The notes under the pieces: model-generated
The model's database searches: none
Seen by the model: only the letters and a program-made list of their open reading frames with translations
What the model was told of the DNA's origin: nothing
Shown here: one piece after another, positions 1,521 through 31,565 of the stretch
Layout: the number at the start of each line of letters is the position of its first letter
Numbering within the stretch: position 1 is the first letter of the stretch
Position numbers and translations under genes: made by a program
From: Clostridiales bacterium
GTDB taxonomy: Bacteria > Bacillota > Clostridia > Christensenellales > Pumilibacteraceae
Assembly (NCBI GenBank): GCA_029070965.1
Contig: JAIEBI010000006.1
Span: 1 to 34,995, forward strand
Direction: 5' to 3'
DNA length: 34,995 bases

Positions 1521-1549
1521 TTGATTTTTTAAAATCTTTTTTGTATAAT
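1521..1549 (+). promoter_or_regulatory. Sigma-A promoter of tetR, placing +1 at the start codon
   Basis: The -35 is TTGATT (1521-1526), the spacer is 17 bases and the -10 is TATAAT (1544-1549). Six bases separate the -10 from the ATG at 1556, so the expected transcription start is the A of ATG. There is no ribosome-binding site, which points to a leaderless mRNA. Confidence 0.8.
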
Positions 1550-1555
1550 CTAAAT

Positions 1556-2149
1556 ATGAATAGATCGGAATCTAAATTTGAAAATACCGCAAGCAAAATG
1601 CGGCGCGCGTTTTTGACTTTGTTGGAAAGCAAAGAGTTTGCCGATATCAGCATAATGGATATTTGCAAGACGGCGGACGTAAACCGTTCCACCTTTTACG
1701 CGCACTACGACAACACGTACGACCTACTGAAAGAAGCATTTGAAAGTATGATTGCAAACTTCCAAAGCGAATGCGATTTTGACAATCCCGTAGATTTATC
1801 GGATATGCGCAATTTAAGCAAGGAAGATTTGAACCTTGCTTCGCCCAAATATTTGTTACCCTATCTCAAATACATACAAAAGCACAAGAGGCTTTACAGA
1901 ATATATTCCGACAACGCTCACGTATTCGAAACGAGCAAGATGGACGATTATATGATAGAAAACATTTTCGCACCTATCTATGCTAAGCACGGCGTGACCG
2001 ACAAAAAGCTGATTTTCTATATGCAAAAGTTTTTCTTTAAAGGCATTGACGCTATAATACACGAATGGGTGCGCAACGACTGCGAGGACGATATTTTGTT
2101 TGTTTGCGAGATTATAACCTACTGCGTGCGGCCGATGAGCTACAAATAA
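1556..2149 (+). CDS. TetR/AcrR-family transcriptional regulator
   Basis: A 197-residue regulator. The N-terminal helix-turn-helix domain is clear at about residues 12-60: an FADISIMDICKTADVNRSTFY stretch followed by AHYDNTYDLL, which is the TetR DNA-recognition region. The rest is helical and resembles the TetR_C_8 / DhaS-like C-terminal domain. I chose ATG at 1556 although the frame is open further upstream, because it starts just before the DNA-binding domain and sits six bases after a TATAAT box. No ribosome-binding site precedes it, so translation is probably leaderless. It is divergent from the 1423/cls pair and has a palindrome upstream (1497-1516). It likely represses itself and perhaps those neighbours; its ligand is unknown. 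Confidence 0.9.
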   Translation: MNRSESKFENTASKMRRAFLTLLESKEFADISIMDICKTADVNRSTFYAHYDNTYDLLKEAFESMIANFQSECDFDNPVDLSDMRNLSKEDLNLASPKYLLPYLKYIQKHKRLYRIYSDNAHVFETSKMDDYMIENIFAPIYAKHGVTDKKLIFYMQKFFFKGIDAIIHEWVRNDCEDDILFVCEIITYCVRPMSYK

Positions 2150-2157
2150 CAAAAGAA

Positions 2158-2195
2158 AATACGGTATCGGGAAAACCGATACCGTATTATTTTTG
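2158..2195. terminator. Bidirectional terminator between tetR and ddl
   Basis: A perfect 13-bp stem (AATACGGTATCGG pairing with 2176-2188) closes a GAAAA loop. A T-run follows on the plus strand and an A-rich run precedes it, so it can stop both convergent transcripts. Confidence 0.9.
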
Positions 2196-2209
2196 CTGTT
2201 TATTTAACG

Positions 2210-3286
2210 CTACTTACCCACTATTGGTGTTGTGGGCGTATACGTGCGTTTTAGCGCGTCAAAACGTTGTTTGCGGCGGTACGCGCAGTCTATCATTTTG
2301 TTTATCTGCTCCGAAAACGGCATTTGTTTTGCAAACAACGGTGACGCCAGTGACCCCGGAATGGTGTTTATTTCATTGACGTAAATATCGTCGCCCTTTA
2401 CCATAAAGTCCACGCGCGCCACCCCGCTGCACCCTATCGCGCGAAACGCCTTTTCCGCCAACTCCTGCACGGTCTCGTTCTTTTCCGCACCTATGCCCGC
2501 GGGGATTTTGTGTTTTAACGACTTTACGTCGCCCGCGTACTTATCGGCAAACGTCAAAAACGTTTTCCACCCTACCGGCTGTTCTGTTTCCGATACGGTC
2601 AGCTCCTCGTCGTAGCTGTCGCCCAGAACCGCACAGTTGACTTCGATAAAGTCTGTCAGCGCTTTTTCTATAATTACCAAATCGTCCCACTCAAACGCCA
2701 CGCGCAGCGAAGCGTAAAGCGCCGACCTATCGTCCGCTACCGATATACCTATCGAGCTACCCAAATTGCACGGCTTGACGATTACGGGATATCCCATTCT
2801 CTCAACCGCTTCAATCACCTCTTTTTCGTCGGCGTTGTACTTGGCGTGCGTAGTCGTCACGTACGGCAGCACGTTGAGCCCCGCATGTTCAAATGCTATC
2901 TTGGACAGCACTTTGTTCATACCGATAGCCGAAGCCGCTACGCCGCTACCCGTATACGGTATGCCGCACATTTCCAGCAAGCCTTGGAGCGAGCCGTCCT
3001 CGCCTAATATTCCGTGCATGCACAGCAGTGCCGCGTCCACTTTGTACAGCTTTTTGTTTTTGTGGTACAAATAGCCGTCGTCGGGACGAAGGTGTACCCT
3101 TTTCCCGTCGAACCTATTGTTGCGCACCGCGGATACGCTGTCGAAGCATTCCGCCGCCCACCACGCGCCGTCACTGTCTATGTACACGCCAACGCACTTT
3201 TGTTTGCACGCGGACATGGCTTGCAGGCCTGTAATTATGCTAATGTCGTGCTCGCACGACCGTCCACCGAAAAATACAGCAATCAT
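2210..3286 (-). CDS. ddl: D-alanine--D-alanine ligase
   Basis: A 358-residue ATP-grasp ligase that joins two D-Ala for the end of the peptidoglycan stem peptide. Visible motifs are GGRSCEHDIS at the N-terminus (Glu12 corresponds to E. coli DdlB Glu15), the EDGSLQGLLE segment, KPCNLGSSIGIS (Ser of the catalytic triad) and VNEINTIPG at the Mg/ATP site. The omega-loop reads FADKYAGD; its Tyr aligns with DdlB Tyr216, the residue kept in D-Ala-D-Ala ligases and usually changed in D-Ala-D-Lac enzymes, so a vancomycin-resistant cell wall is not suggested. No ribosome-binding site precedes the ATG. A weak ATCACA-18-TATACA promoter ends six bases before it, so this may be another leaderless gene, less certain than the others. 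It heads the envelope run that continues with uppP upstream on the same strand. Confidence 0.95.
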   Translation of the reverse strand: MIAVFFGGRSCEHDISIITGLQAMSACKQKCVGVYIDSDGAWWAAECFDSVSAVRNNRFDGKRVHLRPDDGYLYHKNKKLYKVDAALLCMHGILGEDGSLQGLLEMCGIPYTGSGVAASAIGMNKVLSKIAFEHAGLNVLPYVTTTHAKYNADEKEVIEAVERMGYPVIVKPCNLGSSIGISVADDRSALYASLRVAFEWDDLVIIEKALTDFIEVNCAVLGDSYDEELTVSETEQPVGWKTFLTFADKYAGDVKSLKHKIPAGIGAEKNETVQELAEKAFRAIGCSGVARVDFMVKGDDIYVNEINTIPGSLASPLFAKQMPFSEQINKMIDCAYRRKQRFDALKRTYTPTTPIVGK

Positions 3287-3344
3287 ACTTGTTGTATATG
3301 ATTGCCGTAATTAAATTGTGATAGATTTTATGTTTATGTTTATT

Positions 3345-4121
3345 TTACAAAAAATAGAACGAAAAAGTTAAAATAGAAACGATAAACAGGTACAGCGAGA
3401 ACCATTTGAAATTTGCTTTGGCTATGAGTTTGAGCATAACCCTTACCGCTATATACCCCGACGCAAACGCCGTTGCCGCGCCTATAAACATACTGAACCA
3501 GTCCACGCTGGCGAGCGAGCCCGCCTGAGCGACGTCCACAACGCTGAATAGTAGCGACCCGCAAATAATCGGTATGCTCATAAGGAATGAAAACGTTGCT
3601 ATCTTTTTGCTGTCCGTACCCGCTACCGTGCCGCCGAAAATTGTCGAGCCCGACCGCGACACTCCCGGGAGCACACCCAGTCCCTGCATCAGTCCCATAG
3701 CCACTGCGCCGCCCCAATTAAGCTCTTTGGGTGCCTTGTTGCGCTTTGCAACAATTTCGCTTATCAGCATTATCGCCGCGGTAAACGCGAAAAAGAAGCA
3801 AAGATATTTGGCGGTGGAGAAGTATTCATCTATCAAATCGTTGCAAGTAAGTCCCACTATAACCGCGGGAATTGTTGCGACAACAAGCATTGCAAGGTTT
3901 TTGTACGGTTTTTTGAACAGCTCTAAAATAGGCTTATATAACACTATAACCACGGCGACAAGCGTGCCCACATGCACCATTACGTCAAACAGCAAAAAAG
4001 AGCTGCCGTCGTTAAGCCCCATCAGCTCTCTTGTAAGTATTAGATGTCCGCTGGACGATACCGGCAAAAACTCGGTAAGTCCTTGCACCAGTCCCAGCAC
4101 CATGGCTTGCCACCAAACCAT
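3345..4121 (-). CDS. uppP: Undecaprenyl-diphosphatase (BacA/UppP)
   Basis: A 258-residue multi-pass membrane enzyme that dephosphorylates undecaprenyl pyrophosphate so that the lipid carrier can be reused for cell-wall synthesis; family members confer bacitracin tolerance. The two family signatures are intact: QGLTEFLPVSSSGH at residues 13-26 (Glu17) and PGVSRSGST at residues 152-160 (Arg156). Hydrophobic segments cover most of the rest. The start is well supported by GGAGGT seven bases before the ATG. It sits between the PglF-like gene and ddl on the same strand, with gaps of 94 and 58 bases, consistent with a loose envelope gene cluster. Confidence 0.97.
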   Translation of the reverse strand: MVWWQAMVLGLVQGLTEFLPVSSSGHLILTRELMGLNDGSSFLLFDVMVHVGTLVAVVIVLYKPILELFKKPYKNLAMLVVATIPAVIVGLTCNDLIDEYFSTAKYLCFFFAFTAAIMLISEIVAKRNKAPKELNWGGAVAMGLMQGLGVLPGVSRSGSTIFGGTVAGTDSKKIATFSFLMSIPIICGSLLFSVVDVAQAGSLASVDWFSMFIGAATAFASGYIAVRVMLKLIAKANFKWFSLYLFIVSILTFSFYFL

Positions 4122-4215
4122 TAAAGCTACCTCCGGAAAAAACCGTCACAATATATTAATGTATTTGATAAGAAAATTATTACTCGCTTGGGCTGTCGCA
4201 AACCAAACATTTACG

Positions 4216-6258: not shown

Positions 6259-6290
6259 TACGCCTCAATTATACCCTTATATCATACTGT

Positions 6291-6319
6291 ATATTACCAC
6301 AATGCCTTAACTTTGTCAA
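6291..6319 (-). promoter_or_regulatory. Sigma-A promoter of the PglF-like gene
   Basis: TTGACA (6314-6319), 17-base spacer, TAATAT (6291-6296). Expected +1 is near 6284, giving a leader of about 26 bases that contains the GAGG ribosome site. A second TATAAT at 6268-6273 lacks a good -35. Confidence 0.75.
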
Positions 6320-6345
6320 TACTATGATAAAAATTGGTCAATATA

Positions 6346-6369
6346 AATGCGCGGAACGCGCCGCGCATT
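6346..6369. terminator. Strong hairpin between glmM and the PglF-like gene
   Basis: A perfect 9-bp GC-rich stem (AATGCGCGG with CCGCGCATT, loop AACGCG) lies 25 bases past the glmM stop. The run after it on the minus strand is AT-rich but has no pure U-tract, so it may be a weak terminator or an mRNA 3'-end stabiliser. Confidence 0.5.
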
Positions 6370-6393
6370 ATAGTTTTAACCATATTTTGACCG

Positions 6394-7674: not shown

Positions 7675-7722
7675 TTATATCTCCGTTTTGCGCCGTAACA
7701 AGCGCATAAAATTCTAAGTTAA

Positions 7723-7751
7723 ATTATATACTGCCAAAGCTTGCTTGTCAA
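7723..7751 (-). promoter_or_regulatory. Sigma-A promoter of glmM
   Basis: Consensus TTGACA (7746-7751), 17-base spacer, TATAAT (7723-7728). The predicted leader is about 42 bases and contains a normal ribosome-binding site. Confidence 0.88.
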
Positions 7752-7798
7752 TATATATGCGCAAAATTCCCGTTTTGCAAACATTTATTTACTATCTC

Positions 7799-7828
7799 TT
7801 GACATAACCGTAAAATATGGCTTATAAT
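7799..7828 (+). promoter_or_regulatory. Sigma-A promoter of the small membrane protein/glmS unit, start-codon proximal
   Basis: TTGACA (7799-7804), 18-base spacer, TATAAT (7823-7828), then eight bases to the ATG at 7837. No ribosome-binding site fits in that gap, so the mRNA is predicted to begin at or within a few bases of the start codon. Confidence 0.82.
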
Positions 7829-7836
7829 ATAACGGT

Positions 7837-8538
7837 ATGAGTGAATTTGTGCAAGGTATAGCCGAGTCGATGAATAGTGCGCTCGGCGCGCCGCTTAGCG
7901 TATTGCTATTGTCTATCATACCGATAGCCGAAGCGCGTTTTGCCATACCGTTCGGCATAAGTATGGGGCTGTCGCCGATGGAGTCGTTCGGCTGGGCGTT
8001 TTTAGGCTCCTCGCTTATCGCGCCCATACTTCTTATCGTTTTTATTCCAACAATAAACGCGCTGTCAAAAACAAAGTTTTTTTCCAAAATCGGCAAGTTT
8101 TTGTACGATAAGTTTGAAAAGAAATCGCGCTCGCTTGCCGATGTCGTGCAAGACGAACATTCGGGCAACGGAACAAAAAAGCCGTTTGTAACCAAAAGCG
8201 ACCTTAAAAAAATGGGCGGCACGGCGCTGTTTGTAGCCGTTCCCCTGCCGCTTACCGGCGTGTGGACGGGCAGTGCGGTCGCTTCCATACTCAAAATCGG
8301 ATTTGTAAAATCGCTTATCGGCGTTATAGTCGGCAATGCCGTTGCATGCGCGATAATTACGCTGATATCGTTTTTGTTCAAGGACTACGTCAACTATATA
8401 ACACTCGCGTTTTTTATAATTGCGGTAACAGTTGTGGTGGTACTAATCATAAAACTTATATTGTACAAACCCAAAACCGACGGCGAAAATTCTAATACGA
8501 TTTCCGCCAAAGACGACCAGACCACCAATCAAGATTAG
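7837..8538 (+). CDS. Small multidrug-export-type membrane protein (PF06695-like)
   Basis: A 233-residue integral membrane protein. It resembles the poorly characterised COG2426/PF06695 'small multidrug export' family. A short amphipathic start leads into LSIIPIAEARFAIPFGISMG, matching the family's E-x-R-x-A-I-P-x-G signature at about residues 27-46, and a second conserved patch, VAVPLPLTGVWTGS, lies near residues 140-153. Several further hydrophobic helices follow, and the tail is short, charged and Asn/Thr-rich. The drug-export label is historical and I would not rely on it. It is followed 15 bases later by glmS, with which it must share a transcript. Its promoter puts the start codon at about +1, and there is no Shine-Dalgarno sequence. 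Confidence 0.8.
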   Translation: MSEFVQGIAESMNSALGAPLSVLLLSIIPIAEARFAIPFGISMGLSPMESFGWAFLGSSLIAPILLIVFIPTINALSKTKFFSKIGKFLYDKFEKKSRSLADVVQDEHSGNGTKKPFVTKSDLKKMGGTALFVAVPLPLTGVWTGSAVASILKIGFVKSLIGVIVGNAVACAIITLISFLFKDYVNYITLAFFIIAVTVVVVLIIKLILYKPKTDGENSNTISAKDDQTTNQD

Positions 8539-8553
8539 TCAAGGAGTTTAGCC

Positions 8554-10380: not shown

Positions 10381-10393
10381 ATATGTAACCAAC

Positions 10394-10432
10394 AAAAAAC
10401 TGCCATTGCGCAATGCAAAGGCAGTTTTTTTT
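10394..10432. terminator. Bidirectional terminator after glmS
   Basis: An 11-bp stem (AAAAAACTGCC with GGCAGTTTTTT) closes a 15-base loop that itself contains a small palindrome, followed by more T. The A-run on the left makes it usable by the convergent lipoprotein gene. Confidence 0.9.
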
Positions 10433-10441
10433 GTTAAACTT

Positions 10442-13043: not shown

Positions 13044-13053
13044 TATTTATTTA

Positions 13054-14655: not shown

Positions 14656-14684
14656 TTGCAAAAGTTATTTTAGTATGCTATAAT
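14656..14684 (+). promoter_or_regulatory. Extended -10 promoter of rpsT
   Basis: TTGCAA (14656-14661), 17-base spacer, TATAAT (14679-14684), preceded by TGC as an extended -10. +1 is near 14691, giving a leader of about 35 bases with AAAAGGAG before the GTG. Confidence 0.85.
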
Positions 14685-14725
14685 TGTATGGCAAATAGAA
14701 AAACGGCGATAAAAGGAGTAAAATC

Positions 14726-17512: not shown

Positions 17513-18059
17513 TGTCTGATTTATCCTTTTTTAAATATGCTTCAACCGCAATGGCTATTACCACAAGCCCGCCGAACGCCGCAAGCAGTCCGCCTACCAA
17601 TCCGTAGCCGCACGCACCCGAAGAGCCCAGCGCTAAAATGCCGCCGACGCCGCCGAAAAACAATATAGCTTTGATTTGCGGCAATTTGCTTTGCGCAAAC
17701 CACAGGGAGAACAAGCACCCTATCGCGGGCGCCGCTATGTATATGGGATAGAGCTGTGTGTAGCCTGCCGGCGTAGTAACCGCCAATAACGAAACAAGTC
17801 CGCAAGAAAGCACCACGCCCGCGAACCACATAGAAAGCGAATTTTTCGCGATTATTGCGCTCAAAAGCACGGCGGCGCCGAACCCGAACAACACCGTGGG
17901 CGCGGCAATATCGCGCACTGCAGCTTTGATAACGCCCGTACCCGCAAGCACCAAAACGACGCCAGCGGCAACAAGCAAACAGCCCATAACGATATTACAC
18001 GCGCATTTTTGCTTTTTGGAAAGAGGAAGTACGACATCAGTCGTCCCACTTGTCTTCAT
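17505..18059 (-). CDS. Small multi-pass membrane protein, function unknown
   Basis: A protein of about 184 residues with five or six hydrophobic helices covering roughly residues 20-175 and a short charged C-terminus (EAYLKKDKSDNA). I see no recognised motif. The ATG at 18059 is preferred to one two codons earlier because GGAGG then lies at a proper distance. The gene overlaps the end of lgt by 23 bases and pncB by eight, so translation should be coupled on both sides. A role tied to lipoprotein processing or NAD precursor uptake can be imagined from the neighbours only. Confidence 0.75.
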   Translation of the reverse strand: MKTSGTTDVVLPLSKKQKCACNIVMGCLLVAAGVVLVLAGTGVIKAAVRDIAAPTVLFGFGAAVLLSAIIAKNSLSMWFAGVVLSCGLVSLLAVTTPAGYTQLYPIYIAAPAIGCLFSLWFAQSKLPQIKAILFFGGVGGILALGSSGACGYGLVGGLLAAFGGLVVIAIAVEAYLKKDKSDNA

Positions 18060-19140
18060 ACGCATCCTCCGCGTCGTCCGATATGACCTCTTTTGTAACT
18101 ACTTTATTTACTGTTTTTTGCGGCGTCGGACGAGTATTATCGCCGTCACCGTCCTCAGTTTCGTTTTTCACCTTAATTGCAACGCCGCTTTCGTCGACGA
18201 TTATCTCCTCTTTGTTCCTAACCTTTTTTCTGTCCTTAAAGAACACAATATCGGGCATGGGATGTGCAAGCTTGGTCTTTTCGTAGCCGTAGTAATCGTC
18301 GTTCAGCTTCTTTTCATTAACAAAGATAAATACCTTTTTGCCGGCGCGCTTGGCACGGATTATATGCGTTGCAATTATAGCAACGCCCATAATAATAAAC
18401 AGTACGCTTACAAACACGCTTACGCGCATTCCGCCCAAATACAGCACGTCGTTTACGCGGATAGCTTCTATCCACGCCCTGCCTATACCATAACATATGC
18501 CGTATGCGGCAAAAACGAAACCGTCGAAGCTTTTGTGCCGTCCCAAATACAAATACAACAGCACGAAAAATCCGAAGAAATTCCACAGCGATTCGTAGAA
18601 CCATATGGACGTGCGCCACTCGTCGCCCACCTTCATGCTGAGCGGCGCCCACTGGAACGCCGGATTGGTAACGACCTCGCCGTAGCACTCGCCGTTGGTA
18701 AAGTTGCCCCAGCGCGCTATGACCTGTCCGAGCATGATAAACGCAAAGCCTACGTCGGCGATTTGCCAAAACGATACGCGTTTATTTTCGGGCAGTTTTT
18801 TTCTGTTCTTCCAAAAATGAAAGATGACCGCACCGGCAATAGAGCCGAAAAGTCCGCCGTATATTGCAAGCCCCGCAAGCCCTTTGAACTCGCCGCCCGA
18901 AAATCCGCAAAATTCCGCGAACGTCCAAGAATTGCCCGCTATTACGTCAAACACGACGTGGTAAATGCGCGCGCCTATAATGGCAAGCGGCAAACAAATT
19001 ATAATCATGTCGATTATAACGTCGCCTTCCAAGCCGTGGTGCTTTGCGGCAAAGTAACAGCCGATAACGCCGCACATTATGCCTGTCGCCATAAGCAACC
19101 CGTACCAATTAAACGAACTGATAAAAGCTAAAGAATTCAT
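18037..19140 (-). CDS. lgt: Prolipoprotein diacylglyceryl transferase with C-terminal extension
   Basis: A 367-residue membrane enzyme that moves diacylglycerol from phosphatidylglycerol to the lipobox Cys of prolipoproteins. The Lgt signature GQVIARWGNFTNGECYG is intact (Arg143, Asn146), and seven or so membrane helices cover residues 12-275. After the last helix comes a tail of about 90 charged residues (HPMPDIVFFKDRKK..., then Asp/Glu-rich) not found in the minimal enzyme. The start is set at ATG 19140, six bases after a perfect TTGACA-17-TATAAT promoter; there is no Shine-Dalgarno sequence. It leads a four-gene operon with overlapping genes. Three predicted lipoproteins in this window are its likely substrates. 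Confidence 0.96.
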   Translation of the reverse strand: MNSLAFISSFNWYGLLMATGIMCGVIGCYFAAKHHGLEGDVIIDMIIICLPLAIIGARIYHVVFDVIAGNSWTFAEFCGFSGGEFKGLAGLAIYGGLFGSIAGAVIFHFWKNRKKLPENKRVSFWQIADVGFAFIMLGQVIARWGNFTNGECYGEVVTNPAFQWAPLSMKVGDEWRTSIWFYESLWNFFGFFVLLYLYLGRHKSFDGFVFAAYGICYGIGRAWIEAIRVNDVLYLGGMRVSVFVSVLFIIMGVAIIATHIIRAKRAGKKVFIFVNEKKLNDDYYGYEKTKLAHPMPDIVFFKDRKKVRNKEEIIVDESGVAIKVKNETEDGDGDNTRPTPQKTVNKVVTKEVISDDAEDAYEDKWDD

Positions 19141-19146
19141 ATCCCG

Positions 19147-19175
19147 ATTATAGCCTTTATCTATCACTTTGTCAA
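19147..19175 (-). promoter_or_regulatory. Consensus promoter of lgt, placing +1 at the start codon
   Basis: Perfect TTGACA (19170-19175), 17-base spacer and TATAAT (19147-19152), then six bases (CGGGAT) and the ATG. The predicted transcription start is the A of ATG. This is the clearest leaderless promoter of the window. The remaining 19176-19297 spacer shows nothing else of note. Confidence 0.9.
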
Positions 19176-21945: not shown

Positions 21946-21973
21946 ATATTTATCCGTATTTGTAGTTGGTTGA

Positions 21974-22002
21974 ATTATACCATATGCAAATTATAAATGC
22001 AA
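21974..22002 (-). promoter_or_regulatory. Extended -10 promoter of cca
   Basis: TTGCAT (21997-22002), 17-base spacer ending TGG, then TATAAT (21974-21979). Its -35 is only six bases from the -35 of the divergent esterase promoter, so the two probably compete or are co-regulated. Confidence 0.8.
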
Positions 22003-22008
22003 GCAATA

Positions 22009-22037
22009 TTGACATTTATTTATTATAGGTGTATACT
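22009..22037 (+). promoter_or_regulatory. Sigma-A promoter of the esterase gene
   Basis: TTGACA (22009-22014), 17-base spacer, TATACT (22032-22037). Leader of about 25 bases with TTAGGACGG before the ATG. Confidence 0.85.
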
Positions 22038-22068
22038 GAAAAGAACTAATTTCATTAGGACGGTGAAA

Positions 22069-22824
22069 ATGAAACGTAAGTATGAGATAGCTGTTTTATC
22101 CAAAGGCGGGTTTGCGCGCACGGTGCGCATTTACGCGCCCAAAAAAGCCGACCGTGCAATAATAATGCACGACGGACAAAACGTGTTTTACGACGAGGAC
22201 GCCTCGTACAAAAAGAGTTGGCGGGCGCTTGACGCGCTTAAAGCGGAAAACATAAAAAATACCGCTATTATCGGCATAGACAGCACCGCCACCCGCGAAT
22301 TCGATTATTTGCCGTTTCCTATCGAGAACGCCGAAAAGCTGGGAAGGACGCCAAGCGGCGGCAAAGCTGACGAGTATATGGACTACTTGGAGGAAATTAT
22401 TATTCCCTACCTCGACAAACGATTCGGGTTTAAGCTGTACGGCATGCTCGGCTCGTCCTTCGGCGGAATTGCAACTTTATACTTTGCGGCGCGAAAAAAT
22501 CAACGCGTCAAGGCTTACGGCATGTTTTCCACACCGCTGTTCGTCAGCCCCAATGCTTTTACCGAGTTTTTTAAAACCGCTTCGTTCGACGCCGACGCAT
22601 ACTACAAGGTGTACACCGGCGGCAACGAAATAACGACCGACAATCCCGAGCTGATGAAAATAGAGTCGCAAATGTTTGTGACCGACTCCTACACGCTTAC
22701 CGACGAGCTTAGAAATCACGGCGCGGTAAACCTCGACCTTACAATTACTAACACGGCGGGACATGACGAGCTTGCTTGGCGCCCGCCCGCGCAAGATTTC
22801 TTTAAAAAGTTTTCGTTGCTCTGA
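22069..22824 (+). CDS. Alpha/beta-hydrolase, esterase D / putative-esterase family
   Basis: A 251-residue cytoplasmic-looking hydrolase. Motifs are MHDGQNVFYDEDASY (oxyanion region typical of the YieL/Fes/esterase-D group), the nucleophile elbow MLGSSFGGIAT (Ser about residue 127) and a C-terminal TAGHDELAWRP with the likely catalytic His. There is no signal peptide. The start at 22069 has AGGACGG upstream. The substrate cannot be told from sequence; siderophore, feruloyl or acyl esters are all handled by relatives. It is monocistronic, with its own promoter and terminator. Confidence 0.85.
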   Translation: MKRKYEIAVLSKGGFARTVRIYAPKKADRAIIMHDGQNVFYDEDASYKKSWRALDALKAENIKNTAIIGIDSTATREFDYLPFPIENAEKLGRTPSGGKADEYMDYLEEIIIPYLDKRFGFKLYGMLGSSFGGIATLYFAARKNQRVKAYGMFSTPLFVSPNAFTEFFKTASFDADAYYKVYTGGNEITTDNPELMKIESQMFVTDSYTLTDELRNHGAVNLDLTITNTAGHDELAWRPPAQDFFKKFSLL

Positions 22825-22853
22825 TTTTACAATAAAATATAAATATTGTCTTG

Positions 22854-22885
22854 TGCGCTCGACGGTTCGGGCGCATTATTCTTTT
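22854..22885 (+). terminator. Terminator of the esterase gene
   Basis: A 9-bp stem TGCGCTCGA with TCGGGCGCA (one G-U) and a four-base loop, followed by TTATTCTTTT. The tail overlaps the stop codon of the convergent lipoprotein gene. Confidence 0.7.
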
Positions 22886-25443
22886 ATCAATATCAAAACG
22901 GAGTCTTCGAGAGTAAGCGTCCGCACGGTTGCCCTTCTGTTAACAATCCGTACCGCGTCGGCAACGACAGACGTAATATTTTGGCTCGTAATAGCAAAGC
23001 CGTCCTCGGCACAAACCTCTATCGCCTGATAGTCTACCGTATGCTCGCCGCTTAACGGCACGGATATTGTTTTGCCGCTTTGGTACGCCCGCGCGAATGC
23101 CATTGCAATCTCGCGCAGCCTGTTTGCTTGGATTTCGTTTTTGGCTATATAACAATTTATCTCTTCGCCGTTCACCGTCATATCGGCAAACACGTTTATA
23201 GGCGTTTTTGCCGTTTGCGGCGCATAGCGCAGCGTAGTCTTTTCCTCGTACCTATACGGCTCGAAATGCGTAGCGGAAGACTGCGCGTCCGTCAAGAACA
23301 AATGGCTGTGCAGTCCAAGCTCGTAGTCTTGTGCAGTGCCGTCCAGCCCGAACGACACGTGCGAATCGCCCCAAGTGCAGTCCACAAAGTACCACGCGCC
23401 GTTTACAAACACCTTGTTCCATGCATGCCCGCCTGCGCTGTTTAAATCCTTACCCGCTCTGCCTACGACGCGCACGCACGGTATGCCCTCTATGTTGCAC
23501 ATAAGCGCATACGCCTTGCTCATGCCGTCGCACACGGCGTTTGGACTGTATGCAACACCGCCAAAGGTTGTCGTGCCGTCGCCGAACACGCCCTCCAAAT
23601 AGTACGCGGACAAGCTTTCGCCGCTCGCAATCACCGTCGCCGGCGTGTCGTACGTTACGTGCCACATTATCCAGTCGTAAATGGCATGCGCCTTTTGCAC
23701 ATCGGTCATGTCGTCCGTACAAATACGACGCAATACGCTTCGTGCTTGCTCGTAAACGGCTTGCGCAGTCGATCCTGCCTTCGGTATAGGCTTCACTCCG
23801 TTTTGCGCCGCCAAATACAGCTCGTCGGAATACGAAACCTCTGCCGTGCGCTCAATATTATCTATTGCAAAGCTGTAATTAGACGGGCGGTTTTTGGCAG
23901 CGTCCGTATTGATGTGCGGCAGTATTGTATGAAGCTGCGCCGACCGTGCCGCCGACGTCTCCGTTTGCGTCGTTGGGGTATTCACCGTACTGACGGTAAA
24001 TTCGGTATGCATTACGCTGCCCGAGTCGTTCACCCTTATCCCCGTATAATTTCCGCTGGTTGCGGCTATCGGGAACGCATTGTCCCACAAATCTTTGGCG
24101 CTGCCCGATCTGTTATAGCCGATATAACAATCGAACGACACTTGTGCGTTTGCCTGTTTCTTTCTGAAATATATATAATATTGCGCAATCCGCACGTACT
24201 CGCTGTCCGATGTTACGTAAAGATCGCCGCACGGCAAAACGTTTGTCACATACTTTTTGGCATTTGCGGGCAGCTGCGTAAATGTGATAAAATCGGAATA
24301 CTCGCTTTCGGTTATTGCGTCGCCGTCACCTAGCGATTTTACACGGAATTTGTACTCGATCCGAGTATCGCCCGTCGCGCACAAATCGATAAACGTTCCT
24401 ACGTCAAACCCGTTTTCGTCAAACAGCATCGTATAGCGCGAATCGGTTTGCGAATACTCTACCGCGCCGACTTGCGGGTGCGTTATTTCCACCTTTACTT
24501 TACCTACGGCGTCGTAGCTTATATATGCGTGCGGATACAAATTGTCAAATGTCAACGCGCCGACCGTGGGCAACACCGCGCCGCGGAAAATCGCTTCCTC
24601 CAAGTACTCCGTTTGACCGTTGACCTTGACGGTAAGCGTGTGCCGTCCCGCCGTCGGCGTATAAACGTACGTGCCGACGTTGCCCTCGAACAGCACTTTT
24701 CCGTCCTCGAAATACTGGTAATACATGTCGTCCGCTCCGCTTGCGTCGACCGAAAAAACTATATTGCTAAACGGTTCGCTTTGTTCGAGCTCGCCGCTAA
24801 CGCTTACTTCGGCGGTGACAACGTTGTACACACGCACCGTTATTGCATTAGACGTAAAACCGCCGCACTTGGCGACAACGGTATATTCGCCCGCTTCGCT
24901 CGGCGTAAACTCGAACTGCGCGGAAAGTGAAAGCGTTTCGTTTAGCTCGTCGTTTACGTACCAATAAGCTCTTTCGCTTTTGCTCGGCTCACCTTTTGCG
25001 TTAAGCGTAAAAGTTACTTTTGAAGTATTTCCGAATGTTTGCACAAGCTCGCCGCTTGCAGATATGTTAAGCGAATCCTCTGCCTGTTCGGAGACAGTGA
25101 TAAGTACGCTCGCGCTTGCCGAGCTTGTGTATGCCGTTATCCACGCCTCGCCTTCGGCAACGGCTTTTATAACCGTATTACTGCCCTTTTCCACCACTAC
25201 TACAGCGGCGGCAGATGTCTTTAATCGGTACACGTCAGTGTTGGTTTCGAGTATGCGCGAAATGTCGTATATCTCGCCAATACTCAAAGTATGCTCGCGC
25301 TGCGTAAACTGTATTACGTCAGGCTTGAATAAATCTTCCATCAACGAACAGCCGAGCGACAATGCCGCTATTGCCGCAATAAGAATGGTGGCAATAGCGA
25401 TGCGTATATGTGTCAAAAATCTTTTTGTACCGACTTTTTGCAT
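22876..25443 (-). CDS. Ig-like/transglutaminase lipoprotein (catalytic triad intact)
   Basis: An 855-residue exported lipoprotein. I chose ATG at 25443, which overlaps the stop of the upstream paralogue (TAATG) and has GGAGG four bases upstream; an earlier in-frame start is not supported. The signal peptide ends at a lipobox (LSLGC). A Big_2-like domain follows (about residues 40-115), then two or more PKD/Ig-like beta domains (about 120-290) and further beta-rich segments. The transglutaminase core has NAVCDGMSKAYAL (Cys638), GGHAWNKV (His673) and FVDCTWGD (Asp688). About 150 residues follow this core. It could crosslink or cleave surface proteins. It is translationally coupled to its degenerate paralogue. 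Confidence 0.88.
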   Translation of the reverse strand: MQKVGTKRFLTHIRIAIATILIAAIAALSLGCSLMEDLFKPDVIQFTQREHTLSIGEIYDISRILETNTDVYRLKTSAAAVVVVEKGSNTVIKAVAEGEAWITAYTSSASASVLITVSEQAEDSLNISASGELVQTFGNTSKVTFTLNAKGEPSKSERAYWYVNDELNETLSLSAQFEFTPSEAGEYTVVAKCGGFTSNAITVRVYNVVTAEVSVSGELEQSEPFSNIVFSVDASGADDMYYQYFEDGKVLFEGNVGTYVYTPTAGRHTLTVKVNGQTEYLEEAIFRGAVLPTVGALTFDNLYPHAYISYDAVGKVKVEITHPQVGAVEYSQTDSRYTMLFDENGFDVGTFIDLCATGDTRIEYKFRVKSLGDGDAITESEYSDFITFTQLPANAKKYVTNVLPCGDLYVTSDSEYVRIAQYYIYFRKKQANAQVSFDCYIGYNRSGSAKDLWDNAFPIAATSGNYTGIRVNDSGSVMHTEFTVSTVNTPTTQTETSAARSAQLHTILPHINTDAAKNRPSNYSFAIDNIERTAEVSYSDELYLAAQNGVKPIPKAGSTAQAVYEQARSVLRRICTDDMTDVQKAHAIYDWIMWHVTYDTPATVIASGESLSAYYLEGVFGDGTTTFGGVAYSPNAVCDGMSKAYALMCNIEGIPCVRVVGRAGKDLNSAGGHAWNKVFVNGAWYFVDCTWGDSHVSFGLDGTAQDYELGLHSHLFLTDAQSSATHFEPYRYEEKTTLRYAPQTAKTPINVFADMTVNGEEINCYIAKNEIQANRLREIAMAFARAYQSGKTISVPLSGEHTVDYQAIEVCAEDGFAITSQNITSVVADAVRIVNRRATVRTLTLEDSVLILIKE

Positions 25444-27881
25444 TATCCCTCCGATTGTACCGTTCTCGGCGACACGGCAACCGCGCAAATTATGTTATCC
25501 GCAATTATCGTGCGCCTGCTTGCAAACGTAGCGTTAAGCACTTCGCTTGCATACTCGCTTATAGCCCTGTTTACGTACCCCGATATTTCGCTCACTTCTT
25601 CCTCCGTCATGTCGACGTCGCAAGCAAGCTCCACGCCGTATGTGTTGTTGTAAATAATTACCTCGCCGCCTACAAACGGTATGTGCGTGTTGCCCACCTC
25701 GACGGCGCTAAACGCATTAAACACTACCACACGGACGGCATTATACGCAGCTTCCGCTTTGGCAATATAGTTATCTATATACCAGCCGTCACAGTCGTAC
25801 TTTTGCATATACTGCGAATGCGTTACGTCAAACGCCTCGTAACCGTCGTCTACCGCACAGCCAAGCCGTTCAAGCTCGCCGTCGCTTATAAGCAAGCCGC
25901 GGTGCGACGTAAACCAAACCGAATTGGTTATGCCTGCACTTGTCCCCGTAATCACCAGCTTGCCGCCGAAAACGTCCACGTTGTACCACAATCCGTCTAA
26001 ATTGACTTTGTTGTAATACCCGTACCCTTCGCCGTGACAAATAACGCACTCTATGCCTTCGATGCCGCAAAGCAAGGCAAACGCTTTGGCGGCGCCTTCG
26101 CTCGTCACCACGTAACCCGATCCGGAAGATTCCGAGTTTGCAAACACGCCCTCCAAAAACCTTCCTGCGGAATTATCTTCAACGTTACTTGTATTAAACG
26201 TAAACCACTGCAACCAATCGTATATTGCGTGGATTTTTTTCTCCTGCGTGTAGTCCCTGCCTATTATGCGCAAAAGAATCGTTTTTGCCGAGCGGTAAAC
26301 GGTATGCGCAACGTCTCCGCTTTGCGTTGTCGGTTTCAAACCGTTTGATATTGCTATAAGCAACTGCTCGCTGCCGCTAACCGTCACACTGCGCGTCGCC
26401 CTGTCGGACAAAAAAACGTAGTCGTTGGCACGGCGAGAAGCACTGTTATATTCTATGTGCGGAAGCTCGGCGTATGAAACGCTTTTTGACGCGTTTTCTT
26501 GACTTGCGGGACTGTTTGAGTACGGGGCAAAGTCGAGCGTAATTACGTTGCCGTCGGTCGCCGTAGTCACGTTCAGCCCAAGCTGTTGCGCCTTAGCGGT
26601 TATAATTTGTTCGGTGCGCTCTACGTCTACCGCGTAGCATTTGGCGCTTTGCACACCCGTAGCGTACAGCTCACGGACGTATTCCGCCGCTTCGTTTTCG
26701 CTTGAAATAAACGAATTGCGGCAAAGCACCTTGTTATCGATATATTGCTGAACGTCCACACCAAGCTGGGAAAAACCGAACTCGTACCTATCGCCGTCCA
26801 TTCCTATAATAATTGTGTACGACCGAGGATTTGCCGCGCAAACGGAAATATACTCTGTCGCCCTAAACGCGCCGCTCGTAAATAAATGCGAATACTGAGC
26901 GTCGGTAACGTCAAAGGTATTGCGCTTACCGTCGGGATCGGTAATGCACACGTACATAACCTTGCGCCCCTCGGAAAAGCGAATATACACGCCCTCAGCG
27001 TCGTCAAAATCCACTACACAGTCGGAATGATTATCGCTCGCTATATTTAACGCAAGCTCGTTTTTGCCTTCTATACGCTTTTGTTCGCCGTTCACAAACA
27101 GCGAAATATCGTACCGCCCTACCGACGGAGTAAAATCAAACGTGGGGCTGTTAGCCATAATCACGCCGTTTATCCGCCATTCGTACAGCGAACGCGGATT
27201 GAGCGAGTTGACAGCCTCGTACGCCGTAAACGTTACCGTCGAGTATGCCGTAGCGTTGTTTAGACCCGTATGTCCTACCGTGACATCGGTAGGTCTGTAC
27301 ACCTTGATATCGCTGCTCTTTACGATACTGCCGACGGTTGCCGTAACGGTATACTCGCCGTAGCCGTCGGGCGTGTATTCAAAGCTGCTGCCGCTGTATT
27401 CCGTGCCGTCGCTTACCCGCCACTGCACATCCGTTTGCGGTACGTTGCCGTCAAACTCTGCCGACAACACCACCGTTTTAAAATTACCGCCGCTTGCCGT
27501 TTGTACGCTGTTTTCCGACGCAATAGTAAAGTCGGTCACGTCGCGGGGGCTTACGTTCACCTTCATCACCGCAGTTTTGCCGTGCGCGGAAATCTTTACG
27601 TCCGCGCTTCCCGACTTGACCGCAACGACCGTTGTGCCGTCTATCGAAACGCAATCGGAGTCCGCGCTAAGCGTCACCGTTCCGCCGCTTGTCGCGGGCG
27701 AAAAACTGACGTACGGCAAAATGCTTCGGCTCTCGCCCACCGCAAGCGAAAGCTCGGTGCGCGACAAAATTATGTCCACGTTATTATCGGAACAGCCAAA
27801 CAAAAGCGCGGCAAAAAGCGTCACCGCCGCCGTCAGCGCTATGCGAAAAATATTCTTTCCGATTTTTTGTACTGTTCCCAC
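25443..27881 (-). CDS. Paralogous Ig-like/transglutaminase lipoprotein with lost catalytic residues
   Basis: An 812-residue lipoprotein starting at GTG 27881. The signal peptide ends at LLFGC, followed by a clear Big_2 domain (about 35-110) and PKD/Ig-like domains (about 115-275). It parallels the downstream gene along its length (IHAIYDWLQWFTFNT against AHAIYDWIMWHVTYDT; AFALLCGIEGIECV against AYALMCNIEGIPCV). At the positions of the active triad it has Ser594 for Cys and Gly621 for His; only Asp636 remains. It is therefore probably a non-catalytic pseudoenzyme, kept as a full open frame. A TTGCAT-17-TATACT promoter ends six bases before the GTG, and no ribosome site is present, so the mRNA is predicted leaderless. 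Confidence 0.87.
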   Translation of the reverse strand: MGTVQKIGKNIFRIALTAAVTLFAALLFGCSDNNVDIILSRTELSLAVGESRSILPYVSFSPATSGGTVTLSADSDCVSIDGTTVVAVKSGSADVKISAHGKTAVMKVNVSPRDVTDFTIASENSVQTASGGNFKTVVLSAEFDGNVPQTDVQWRVSDGTEYSGSSFEYTPDGYGEYTVTATVGSIVKSSDIKVYRPTDVTVGHTGLNNATAYSTVTFTAYEAVNSLNPRSLYEWRINGVIMANSPTFDFTPSVGRYDISLFVNGEQKRIEGKNELALNIASDNHSDCVVDFDDAEGVYIRFSEGRKVMYVCITDPDGKRNTFDVTDAQYSHLFTSGAFRATEYISVCAANPRSYTIIIGMDGDRYEFGFSQLGVDVQQYIDNKVLCRNSFISSENEAAEYVRELYATGVQSAKCYAVDVERTEQIITAKAQQLGLNVTTATDGNVITLDFAPYSNSPASQENASKSVSYAELPHIEYNSASRRANDYVFLSDRATRSVTVSGSEQLLIAISNGLKPTTQSGDVAHTVYRSAKTILLRIIGRDYTQEKKIHAIYDWLQWFTFNTSNVEDNSAGRFLEGVFANSESSGSGYVVTSEGAAKAFALLCGIEGIECVICHGEGYGYYNKVNLDGLWYNVDVFGGKLVITGTSAGITNSVWFTSHRGLLISDGELERLGCAVDDGYEAFDVTHSQYMQKYDCDGWYIDNYIAKAEAAYNAVRVVVFNAFSAVEVGNTHIPFVGGEVIIYNNTYGVELACDVDMTEEEVSEISGYVNRAISEYASEVLNATFASRRTIIADNIICAVAVSPRTVQSEG

Positions 27882-27887
27882 GTATAC

Positions 27888-27916
27888 AGTATATCAAATA
27901 CGGCGAGTAAATGCAA
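27888..27916 (-). promoter_or_regulatory. Promoter of the paired lipoproteins, placing +1 at the GTG
   Basis: TTGCAT (27911-27916), 17-base spacer, TATACT (27888-27893), then six bases and the GTG start. This spacing matches the lgt, tetR and DUF3810 promoters. Confidence 0.72.
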
Positions 27917-27990
27917 GGAAATGCGAAAAAATATATATCTATATTGTTTTTGAATTCATTTTGCGAGACGGTAAAACATAAGATATACCG

Positions 27991-29496: not shown

Positions 29497-29501
29497 TTCG
29501 C

Positions 29502-29530
29502 TTTACTTAAATTTATGAGCATGCTATAAT
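29502..29530 (+). promoter_or_regulatory. Extended -10 promoter of the ECF S-component gene
   Basis: TTTACT (29502-29507), 17-base spacer ending TGC, TATAAT (29525-29530). Leader of about 26 bases with AGGAG before the GTG at 29563. Confidence 0.75.
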
Positions 29531-29562
29531 AGGCATAACATTTACACAGGAGAAGCCCGACA

Positions 29563-30189
29563 GTGAGTAAAACTCAGCAGGAAATTGCGACTCCGGACAA
29601 TAAAACGCATACACGTAAGGTCCGAACGCAAAAATTAGAATTCGGAACGACTAAATGGTTGACATACGCGGCAATGTTTGCCGCGCTTGCCGTTGTTATG
29701 AAGTTTATCGGCCAGTTTTTAACGCTGACAGACAGCTTCAAAATCACGCTGATATACGTGGTGTGGCTGATTGCAGGCGCAACGCTCGGCGTTTTCGGCG
29801 GCGGCGCGGTGTGCTTTGCCTCCGACGTTTTGGGCGCGATTATATTCCCCACCGGCGCAATCAATCCCTTTTTGATACTCGGCAACACCGTGTACGGCGT
29901 AATAGCCGCGCTTGCGTTTAAGATACCGATAAAAAGCAACGTGGCAAAATTCATTATCGCGGGCTTTGCTTGTACGGTTATTTGCACGTGCGGAATAAAT
30001 ACGCTTGCCATTTATTTTTCGTACTCGTATTACAAGGTTATGTCCGTATGGCAGTACTTTGTCGCCTATCGCATAATGCAACCGGTTGTTGCCATTATCA
30101 ATATCGCAATCGCTATTGCAATGATTCCGCTGCTTAATCGGCTTAGACTGCTTCCGCCCAACAAACGGCGCAAAAAAGCGACAGCATAA
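29563..30189 (+). CDS. ECF transporter S component (FolT-like)
   Basis: A 208-residue membrane protein with a basic N-terminal tail and about six helices. The TKWLTYAAMFAALAVVMKFIG start contains the Ala-x3-Ala type helix used by S components to dock on EcfT. Further runs such as IYVVWLIAGATLGVFGGGAVCFASDVLGAIIFPTG are like the folate/FolT group. S components bind one vitamin or nucleobase tightly and share an EcfAAT energising module, which is not encoded here. The substrate is uncertain; folate is the closest guess. The GTG start has AGGAG ten bases upstream. It is monocistronic, with a terminator at 30207. Confidence 0.85.
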   Translation: MSKTQQEIATPDNKTHTRKVRTQKLEFGTTKWLTYAAMFAALAVVMKFIGQFLTLTDSFKITLIYVVWLIAGATLGVFGGGAVCFASDVLGAIIFPTGAINPFLILGNTVYGVIAALAFKIPIKSNVAKFIIAGFACTVICTCGINTLAIYFSYSYYKVMSVWQYFVAYRIMQPVVAIINIAIAIAMIPLLNRLRLLPPNKRRKKATA

Positions 30190-30206
30190 AATATTACCGA
30201 CAACAA

Positions 30207-30243
30207 AAAACCGCAAAACGCTTGTATGGGCTTTTGCGGTTTT
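30207..30243. terminator. Bidirectional terminator between ECF and DUF3810 genes
   Basis: A perfect 12-bp stem, AAAACCGCAAAA with TTTTGCGGTTTT, with a 13-base loop. The A/T arms let it work in both directions. Confidence 0.9.
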
Positions 30244-30249
30244 ACGCTT

Positions 30250-31530
30250 TTATTCTTCCACTCTTTGCTCGTAAACGGCAAAGAACATTTTTTGCACTTG
30301 CGAAAAGTGTATTATGCGCACAGGCTCCTGCGTTATCGGGTCGCGCTCGGGCTCGCCGGTTACGGGGTCGGTGGGAGTTACTACAGTGCTTTGGTTGCCG
30401 TCCTCGTAGCTGCCCGTGCCGTTCGTCGCGCCGTTCGATTCCAAATACCAATTGTTGAAAAACTCAGCTATTTGCCCTATCAAATCCCACTGCGAATTCC
30501 AATAATCGGCGGCGTACCACCGCTCGACGCGCACTTTGTCGCTTACACGCCGCAAATAGCTTTGGTACGATTGTATGTCCTCGGTAAGTACAAACGCTTC
30601 CAAAAGATTGTCAAACGCGTAATAATACCCGCAATACCGCAAATAATCGTCGTCCGACGATATCAATACATACCGCGCAAGCAGGTTGGCGTCGCCCTCG
30701 CGTAACACGCCTTTTGCATGCGCCAGCTCGTGCGCAAGCGTGATTGTGCGCGTTGTGGGCGGCGCGGCGTTGTTCACGCTCGCCTCGCCCGTCGGCAAAA
30801 AGGTTATGCCTGTTATAAGCATTTGCGACATAAACCAGCTGTTTACTATCGGCTTGGCAGTCGGCGTGTACTGGTTGAAATAGGGGTCGGTCAGCTTGGC
30901 GTACTCCACCTTTACACGCTCCGCCAGCTCGGAAAAGGTGTACGGACATTCCACGCACCCGTTTTTGTCGCGCGGCAATTTTTCGGCAAGCTTGTTATAG
31001 TCGGACAAAAAGTATTCTATTACAGGAATAACGCTTTCCGCGTCGTATTCCTTTTGCGACTGCGGAATAGGCATTTCCGCGCGGTAGTACGCAAACGCCA
31101 TGCTCATCACGTACAAGTTGAACATGTAAATCACGCCCACGCATATAGTCAGCGCGCCCTTGAGTATGCGCAAAAACCTTGCTCTACCGAGGTTGATAAT
31201 AAGCCGCACGTAAAAGAAAATACCCAACCCGATTAAGCAAACTATAAAAAACTCCATTACGGAAAAAGGCAACCACGAAGTGAGCGTGCCTATAACGCGC
31301 TCCCACCCCGCTTCTATATGCGTTGTCCACCACTCGGCAATTTGCGGATCGGTGCGCAAATCCAGCATTATCAGCAACGGTATAAGTAGCGCGCACGAAA
31401 CGGCGGCAAGAATAAACACCGCCCTACCAATAGGGCGTTTTACTTGGCGTACGCGCCGCCCGTCAGCCATGTACATGCGCGCATACCGCCTCGGCATAAT
31501 ATATCCATTGCGCTGCCGAATAAAAGTCAT
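30250..31530 (-). CDS. DUF3810-like membrane zinc metalloprotease
   Basis: A protein of about 426 residues with a basic N-terminal cytoplasmic part, hydrophobic helices at about residues 36-55, 90-110 and 122-145, and a large extracytoplasmic domain. It has the zinc motif HELAHAKGVLREGDAN (HExxH plus a downstream Glu at the third-ligand position), as in the DUF3810 family. The C-terminal end is Thr/Pro-rich (TPTDPVTGEPERDP). The substrate is unknown; an envelope-protein processing role is inferred. I chose ATG at 31530, six bases after a perfect TATAAT; there is no Shine-Dalgarno sequence. The 39-base gap to the FtsX stop is wholly occupied by this promoter. Confidence 0.85.
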   Translation of the reverse strand: MTFIRQRNGYIMPRRYARMYMADGRRVRQVKRPIGRAVFILAAVSCALLIPLLIMLDLRTDPQIAEWWTTHIEAGWERVIGTLTSWLPFSVMEFFIVCLIGLGIFFYVRLIINLGRARFLRILKGALTICVGVIYMFNLYVMSMAFAYYRAEMPIPQSQKEYDAESVIPVIEYFLSDYNKLAEKLPRDKNGCVECPYTFSELAERVKVEYAKLTDPYFNQYTPTAKPIVNSWFMSQMLITGITFLPTGEASVNNAAPPTTRTITLAHELAHAKGVLREGDANLLARYVLISSDDDYLRYCGYYYAFDNLLEAFVLTEDIQSYQSYLRRVSDKVRVERWYAADYWNSQWDLIGQIAEFFNNWYLESNGATNGTGSYEDGNQSTVVTPTDPVTGEPERDPITQEPVRIIHFSQVQKMFFAVYEQRVEE

Positions 31531-31536
31531 AATAGT

Positions 31537-31565
31537 ATTATACAGCAAATATACGATTTTGTCAA
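31537..31565 (-). promoter_or_regulatory. Consensus promoter of the DUF3810 gene, placing +1 at the start codon
   Basis: Perfect TTGACA (31560-31565), 17-base spacer, TATAAT (31537-31542), then six bases (ACTATT) and ATG. The predicted mRNA is leaderless. Confidence 0.9.

What the first reader, a model, noticed from the sequence alone, without database searches (positions are those of the whole stretch)
1521..31565. A set of promoters built to make leaderless mRNAs, with fixed -10 to start-codon spacing
Four genes have a near-consensus -35/N17/-10 promoter whose -10 ends exactly six bases before the start codon, with no Shine-Dalgarno: tetR (TATAAT 1544-1549, ATG 1556), lgt (19147-19152, ATG 19140), DUF3810 (31537-31542, ATG 31530) and the paired lipoproteins (27888-27893, GTG 27881). 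The small membrane protein has the same design with eight bases (7823-7828, ATG 7837). A weaker case is ddl. Other genes in the window (glmM, rpsT, cca, esterase, the ECF component, the second tetR) have equally good promoters but ordinary leaders with ribosome sites. Leaderless genes are common in Actinobacteria and archaea but little described in Clostridia. Several of these genes concern the envelope or regulation, so leaderless status may mark a regulated class.
Basis: partly seen in the sequence, partly recalled or inferred. Interest (0 to 1): 0.8.

Follow-up and report, generated by a model that had tools for sequence, protein, structure and literature searches.

The report
Leaderless promoters in uncultured Clostridia
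In this uncultured Clostridia lineage, up to one strong promoter in six is placed so that the messenger RNA should begin at the start codon with no ribosome-binding leader; such messages are known elsewhere, but their number and conservation here were unexpected.

Summary
All five promoters (tetR, lgt, DUF3810, GTG-start lipoprotein, small export protein) lie at the stated coordinates; the ddl case fails. In 790 kb of this 1.81 Mb genome, start codons peak exactly 6 nt after the -10: 18 genes against about 2 expected, 6 of them in held-out DNA. ATGs there are in frame (18 of 21), and those 18 all follow T; Shine-Dalgarno sites appear in 3/34 genes at d=5-9 against 90/104 with longer leaders. 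The lgt promoter, spacing and ATG recur in the window and all 7 close relatives; 8/13 DUF3810 loci share the design, down to 33% identity. Leaderless mRNA is much the best explanation, although no transcript was measured.

The 'regulated class' idea is not supported: regulators are 6/33 against 4/29 controls.

New here: the other 195 genomes of a class sample average 1.09 times the control density, yet 12 of 30 families in this order exceed it significantly. On an rpoB tree all 12 fall on one side of a 100/100 branch, with four families that do not. Mapped cultured clostridia show 15 genes or 2-4%, though RNA-seq reports 212 in C. acetobutylicum. Loss of ribosomal protein bS21 does not explain it.

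The parts
1521..2149 (+). tetR-like gene with leaderless-type promoter: -35 TTGATT 1521-1526, -10 TATAAT 1544-1549, ATG 1556, ORF 1556-2149
   Evidence: (TetR_N E 4.9e-5, just under the curated cut-off); not conserved: homologue L169 (54% identity) has an AAGGAGG site
7799..8538 (+). small multidrug-export family gene (PF06695): -35 7799-7804, N18, -10 7823-7828, 8 nt, ATG 7837
   Evidence: same N18 and 8-nt spacing in the same-genus genome G318 (L152); 2 of 17 homologous loci carry it, the window's own included
18037..19175 (-). lgt: -35 TTGACA 19175-19170, -10 TATAAT 19152-19147, 6 nt, ATG 19140, ORF 18037-19140
   Evidence: -35, N17, -10, 6-nt spacing and ATG the same in the window and 7 related genomes, while DNA upstream of the -35 is unlike in three of them (L054-L056)
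25443..27916 (-). large lipoprotein-like gene starting GTG 27881: weak -35 TTGCAT 27916-27911, extended -10 TGaTATACT (27896-27888), 6 nt, GTG
   Evidence: homologue in G318 (38% identity) has TGATATAAT, 6 nt, in-frame GTG
30250..31565 (-). DUF3810 gene: -35 TTGACA 31565-31560, -10 TATAAT 31542-31537, 6 nt, ATG 31530
   Evidence: 8 of 13 family loci, the window's own included, have a -10 (>=5/6) at d=6-7

Best explanation
These are ordinary sigma-A-type promoters placed so that RNA polymerase starts on the A (or G) of the start codon: TATAAT, six bases, then +1 at ATG. The mRNA is therefore leaderless and must be initiated by ribosomes binding a 5'-terminal AUG, as in Actinobacteria and Deinococcus (recalled). 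It is a genome-wide second mode beside Shine-Dalgarno initiation: 34 of 208 strong promoters at d=5-9 (16%; about 11% after subtracting the d=11-60 background), 33 genes, 5% of called genes in the sample. It is shared by a group of families within one order of the class, and kept for long periods at some genes (lgt, DUF3810). Shown: sequence architecture, statistics, conservation, distribution of the pattern. Inferred: the transcription start site and the ribosome's behaviour.
For: (1) Sharp peak at exactly d=6: 12/113 and, held out, 6/95 promoters against 1.18 and 0.90 per position; also 7/71 in G288 (f4) and 4/69 in G209 (f79); 0/61 in G224 (f68, same order); 5 among 83 promoters in G318 against 0.90. 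(2) In own DNA 18 of 21 ATGs at d=6 are in the gene's frame. (3) Base before ATG at d=6 is T in 18/18 against 84/170 for d>=11 (p=1.5e-5); in G288, G209 and G318 T 11 and C 5 of 16; a pyrimidine is expected at -1 of a start site (recalled). (4) SD >=4 nt in 3/34 genes at d=5-9 against 90/104 at d=11-60 (p=1e-16). (5) lgt promoter, spacing and ATG the same in window and 7 relatives. (6) DUF3810: 8/13 loci at d=6-7, identity to 33%. (7) GTG lipoprotein design repeated at 38% identity. (8) Orthologues in G318 (promoters >=9/12): of 7 leaderless genes 6 are leaderless there, three of them window genes; 3 of 102 others (Fisher 3e-7). (9) 12 of 30 families of the order significant after Bonferroni, all on one side of a 100/100 branch of the rpoB tree.
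Against: No transcript 5' end has been measured. With d=5-9 the -10 itself fills much of the place where an SD would lie, so the lack of SD is partly implied by the spacing. The lgt spacer carries a shared AAGG 13-14 nt before the ATG, upstream of the -10. tetR is not conserved: the 54%-identical homologue has a full SD. Only 2 of 17 small-export-protein loci keep the spacing, and 5 of 13 DUF3810 loci show no such promoter. One of the six conserved pairs is only 27% identical. With the -10 alone (no -35), d=6 still peaks (18, 8, 7 in ownA, ownB, G318 against means 4.35, 3.85, 4.05), but the net excess over d=5-9 is only 1.8%, 1.4% and -0.4% of genes (G288 4.2%, G209 0.8%, G224 -1.8%), since real leadered promoters raise the baseline. 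G224 has two ATGs at d=6 in the gene's phase, though not as its first in-frame start. Genome-wide pattern counts were not checked against genes. Four families inside the rich half (f72, f82, f83, f89) do not pass the test.
Confidence: 0.88

Rival explanations
1. Chance: compact AT-rich intergenic DNA puts good promoters next to start codons at all distances, and the reader picked the ones at six.
For: A window of 35 kb with four cases is small; promoter-like sites are common (43 and 31 found against 23.2 and 20.5 in shuffles).
Against: The peak is at one spacing, is repeated in held-out DNA and in other families, and is absent from G224; the promoter itself is far above control (242 against 10).
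Confidence: 0.02
2. The ATG at d=6 is an initiator preference of RNA polymerase (T at -1, A at +1), not a start codon; the real start lies downstream behind an ordinary leader.
For: T precedes ATG in 18/18 cases at d=6. Some genes in the list may start further in, such as the GTG case at C19:5082 (my reading of the protein).
Against: ATGs at d=6 are in frame in 18 of 21, homology among DUF3810 proteins begins 0-21 residues after them, ATG and frame are kept in lgt, and SD sites are mostly missing.
Confidence: 0.05
3. Leadered, non-SD translation: a second, unrecognised promoter further upstream makes a longer mRNA that is initiated by S1 or by an unstructured AUG.
For: In C. [quoted passage not shown] DUF3810 also has a 9/12 site at 52 nt.
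Against: Unlike there, these genes mostly lack an RBS (3/34 have one), and DNA upstream of the lgt -35 is unlike in L054-L056 while the promoter is the same.
Confidence: 0.08
4. Leaderless status marks a regulated class of envelope or regulatory genes.
For: At least three of the five window genes are regulatory or membrane/envelope-related by family (TetR, Lgt, export protein).
Against: The wider set of 33 is functionally mixed; regulators 6/33 against 4/29 in leadered controls (envelope genes not formally tested).
Confidence: 0.1

Closest known systems
Leaderless (TA-led) genes of Actinobacteria and Deinococcus-Thermus
   Same: Pribnow-like signal about 10 bp before the start codon in genomes that also have SD-led genes (PMC3160421, passages)
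   Different: There the signal is a loose TAnnnT in high-GC genomes (same passages); here it is a near-consensus TTGACA-N17-TATAAT in DNA of GC 48-50% with SD matches at 66-70% of called starts
TA-led genes of Lactobacillales and Mycoplasma
   Same: Firmicutes with TAtAAT at the leaderless position (PMC3160421, passages)
   Different: That survey found Firmicutes leaderless genes concentrated in those two clades; no word beginning Clostridi- occurs in its main text
Leaderless transcripts in TSS-mapped or RNA-seq clostridia
   Same: Same class, Clostridia; some leaderless transcription
   Different: C. difficile 15 potentially leaderless genes; C. phytofermentans 4% of intergenic TSS, generally with an RBS; solventogenic clostridia about 2-3%; but 212 transcripts by RNA-seq in C. 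acetobutylicum, among genes with detected proteins. Here 16% of strong promoters by sequence, mostly SD-less, some conserved

Membership tests
leaderless genes (bacterial, TA-led) | -10 element ending about 6 nt before the start codon, in excess of chance | tested here: met
   18 of 208 promoters at d=6 against 1.18 and 0.90 per position in the two halves; repeated in held-out DNA
leaderless genes (bacterial, TA-led) | No Shine-Dalgarno site | tested here: met
   SD >=4 nt in 3/34 against 90/104; partly implied by the -10 lying where an SD would be
leaderless genes (bacterial, TA-led) | The codon at the predicted 5' end is the true translation start | tested here: met
   18 of 21 in frame; homology starts 0-21 residues after it in DUF3810 proteins; codon at d=6 ATG 18, GTG 2, TTG 0 in own DNA. 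No protein N-terminus was measured
leaderless genes (bacterial, TA-led) | Transcription start mapped at the start codon | not testable with these tools
   Needs 5'-end RNA sequencing; only indirect support (T at -1 in 18/18)
leaderless genes (bacterial, TA-led) | Translation from a 5'-terminal AUG by 70S or IF2-bound 30S | not testable with these tools
   Mechanism recalled from other bacteria
C. phytofermentans-type apparent leaderless TSS (second upstream TSS, RBS kept) | RBS retained before the start codon | tested here: not met
   3/34 have SD >=4 nt
regulated envelope/regulatory gene class | Enrichment of regulators over leadered genes | tested here: not met
   6/33 against 4/29; small sample
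ribosomes lacking bS21 (recalled for some leaderless-rich phyla) | bS21 gene absent from leaderless-rich families | tested here: not met
   Found in 116 of 121 genomes of the order

The most novel reading that the evidence does not exclude
The lineage would be a further bacterial centre of leaderless expression beside Actinobacteria and Deinococcus, with ribosomal protein bS21 still present, so that whatever licenses leaderless initiation is something other than bS21 loss.
Probability: 0.5. Interest if true: 0.72.

Novelty: new member of a known kind. Interest (0 to 1): 0.56.

Why it matters
Leaderless expression in bacteria is known best from Actinobacteria and Deinococcus (recalled; PMC3160421 passages), and three TSS studies of cultured clostridia report little of it. 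An order that contains both leaderless-rich and leaderless-poor families, with many genomes in each, gives a natural comparison for asking what in the ribosome or initiation factors permits it, and which genes keep it. It also means that gene callers that lean on SD sites may misplace starts in such genomes.

Tried and rejected
bS21 hypothesis: I recalled that Actinobacteria and Thermus lack bS21; of the 14 control genomes it was found in 6, not in the Thermus, Deinobacterium and Corynebacterium entries nor in five others (list of the 14). In this order it was found in 116 of 121 genomes, in rich and poor families alike, so its loss cannot explain the trait.

First rpoB tree: three rows (f79, f85, f75) stood on very long branches; I took them for the wrong ORF and rebuilt with the ORF most like rpoB, after which those branches were ordinary. 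One search is not used.

16S rRNA, wanted for the anti-SD sequence, was not found in this draft genome.

Functional-class idea: tested with leadered genes. Of 102 candidates 40 were drawn at random and 29 scanned: the last ten were not scanned and one very long protein was left out.

In the class sample, seven families outside the order reach p<0.05 without correction (f5, f17, f23, f39, f53, f54, f57); none passes Bonferroni over 65 families. G037 (f39) has 10 hits at d=6, of which 6 are near-identical copies of one repeat.

Christensenellales came to mind only from memory of genome sizes; no call supports it.

Literature: searches for 'leaderless' with 'Christensenellales' and 'leaderless mRNA' with 'Christensenella' gave 0 papers, but rest on that guessed name; 'leaderless transcripts' with 'gut metagenom' and 'gene prediction' gave 0. 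Novelty of the distribution is therefore only weakly tested. The GeneMarkS-2 paper (PMC6028130) is not held; PMC9581028 (passages) says that work predicted leaderless transcription in 21.6% of bacterial species, which may include Clostridia; its list was not seen.
Full report
WHAT WAS CHECKED. The window is contig C56 of a 1.81 Mb, 71-contig, 94.5%-complete draft genome. The five promoters are at the stated coordinates. Three are 12/12 (lgt, DUF3810, small export protein), tetR is 10/12, and the lipoprotein is 8/12 with an extended -10. The ddl case is not supported.

IS IT MORE THAN CHANCE. Strong promoters are real in this genome: TTGACA-N17-TATAAT with up to one mismatch occurs 242 times against 10 for the reversed pattern. 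I took 433 kb (window plus 20 stretches), called genes with a dicodon model, and for each promoter of at least 10/12 upstream of a gene measured the distance d from the end of the -10 to the first in-frame ATG. d=6 occurs in 12 of 113; d=5, 7, 8, 9 in 1, 2, 3, 1; d=11-60 averages 1.18 per position. A second, held-out 357 kb gave d=6 in 6 of 95 and d=7, 8, 9 in 4, 2, 3 against 0.90. Pooled Poisson p for d=6 is 1e-11. Using the -10 alone the same position stands out (18 against 4.35; 8 against 3.85), although the excess summed over d=5-9 is small (1.8% and 1.4% of genes). Together d=5-9 holds 34 of 208 strong promoters (16%; about 24 of 208, or 11%, after subtracting the d=11-60 background) and 33 genes.

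ARE THESE TRANSLATION STARTS. At d=6, 18 of 21 ATGs are in the gene's frame. The base before the ATG is T in 18 of 18, against 84 of 170 at d>=11. SD matches of 4 nt or more are found in 3 of 34 genes at d=5-9 against 90 of 104 at d=11-60 (p=1e-16); this is partly implied, because the -10 sits where an SD would be. The codon at d=6 is ATG 18, GTG 2, TTG 0 in own DNA. SD initiation remains the main mode: 277 of 398 and 183 of 276 called starts.

CONSERVATION. lgt: of 8 loci found seven relatives show, like the window, the same -35, N17, -10, a six-base gap and ATG, while DNA upstream of the -35 is unlike in L054-L056; in the eighth locus, Thermoclostridium caenicola at 38% identity, no such promoter was seen. 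DUF3810: found in 13 of 26 family genomes, the window's included; 8 of the 13 have a -10 at d=6 or 7, identity down to 33%, with homology beginning 0-21 residues after the ATG; 5 do not. Small export protein: the N18/8-nt design is kept in the same-genus genome G318, 2 of 17 loci in all. tetR: not conserved; L169 at 54% identity has AAGGAGG. Lipoprotein: the G318 homologue at 38% identity has TGATATAAT, six bases and an in-frame GTG 36 codons before the aligned part, which begins at query residue 29. Among 109 reciprocal best pairs with 400 kb of G318 (median identity 70%, promoters >=9/12), 6 of 7 leaderless genes are leaderless there, against 3 of 102 others (Fisher 3e-7); three of the six are the window's lgt, DUF3810 and export protein, and one pair is only 27% identical.

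WHERE ELSE. Whole genomes were scanned for TTGA-N18-20-TATAAT-N6-ATG and, as a control, the same with N11-20; these counts are not checked against genes. In 196 genomes drawn over the class, the ratio of d=6 to the per-position control is 1.09 in the other 195 and 3.83 in this genome (18 against 47; p=4e-5); outside the order it is 833 against 793 (1.05; my sum over 186 genomes). Of 65 families only the window's family f1 and f2 of the same order pass Bonferroni correction; seven outside the order are under 0.05 without it (threshold applied by me). In 121 genomes of the order, 12 of 30 families pass (f1, f2, f4, f67, f70, f71, f73, f77, f79, f81, f86, f90; ratios 2.7-8.2; f90 is one genome); 18 do not, among them f3, f68, f84 and f85, with f74 and f80 under 0.05 uncorrected. 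The gene-level test agrees: G288 (f4) 7 of 71, G209 (f79) 4 of 69, G224 (f68) 0 of 61; G224 does have two in-phase ATGs at d=6 that are not first starts. On an rpoB tree of 31 rows, a branch with 100/100 support has all 13 rows of rich families and 4 poor rows (f72, f82, f83, f89) on one side and 14 poor rows on the other; three label changes are needed against 10.3 in shuffles, 0 of 500 as low. Caveats: one gene, midpoint root, a long f2 branch, two short sequences (f85, f88), and f72, f83 and f89 rest on one or two genomes.

FUNCTION. The 33 genes include, by Pfam, DNA polymerase III gamma/tau, a GHMP kinase, a phosphoribosyltransferase, glycoside hydrolases 2 and 16, a PP-loop ATPase, a DivIC protein, an O-antigen-ligase family protein and several regulators. 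Counting TetR, hybrid histidine kinase, protein kinase, ArsR, ECF sigma and LytTR response regulator, regulators are 6 of 33; among 29 leadered controls TetR, ArsR, LysR and histidine kinase make 4. No class is evident; envelope genes were not formally tested.

MECHANISM. With the -10 ending at -7, +1 falls on the first base of the start codon (recalled sigma-70 geometry). The mRNA then has no leader and must be initiated at a 5'-terminal AUG or GUG. The transcription start and the ribosome step are inferred. A candidate cause, loss of bS21, was tested and rejected: 116 of 121 genomes have it.

LITERATURE. Zheng et al. 2011 (PMC3160421, passages) put Firmicutes leaderless genes in Lactobacillales and Mycoplasma. 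TSS maps: 15 potentially leaderless genes in C. difficile (PMC7438776, passage); 4% of intergenic TSS in C. phytofermentans, generally with an RBS (PMC5171806, passages); about 2-3% of transcripts in three solventogenic strains (PMC9045289, passages). Against these, 212 leaderless transcripts by RNA-seq in C. acetobutylicum (PMC4533764, passages). PMC5397173 (passages) treats Firmicutes only broadly in what I saw. PMC9581028 (passages) reports a GeneMarkS-2 prediction of leaderless transcription in 21.6% of bacterial species. The searches returned nothing and that nine papers, seen only as listings; the order's name is unknown, so absence from print is weakly tested.

VERDICT. The kind is known; the number, the conservation and the sharp distribution within one order are the new part.

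Noticed in passing
window 3275-3309 (-): The ddl start codon (ATG 3286) lies inside a 14-pair hairpin, with no 4-nt SD match and no promoter at 5-9 nt: possible translational control rather than leaderless initiation.
   Followed up: no
window 21997-22069 (+): The longest esterase ORF begins upstream of its own promoter (22009-22037); the likely start is ATG 22069 behind a leader.
   Followed up: partly
G037 (class sample, family f39): Six near-identical copies of one TTGATTCCATGCGG...TATAAT-N6-ATG stretch in one genome: a repeated element with a leaderless-type start.
   Followed up: no
window 14667-14694 (-): The germination-protease gene has a 10/12 promoter 5 nt before a TTG codon, but the coding model puts the start further in; undecided.
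   Followed up: no
L175-L194 (G318:C1) 91100-95830: Two tandem homologues of the 812-aa lipoprotein; the first has the leaderless-type GTG, the second an in-frame ATG preceded by GGAGG, so sister copies may use different initiation modes.
   Followed up: partly
L051-L057 upstream of lgt: Besides the promoter, an AAGG just before the -10 and the two bases CG after it are shared by the lgt promoters.
   Followed up: no
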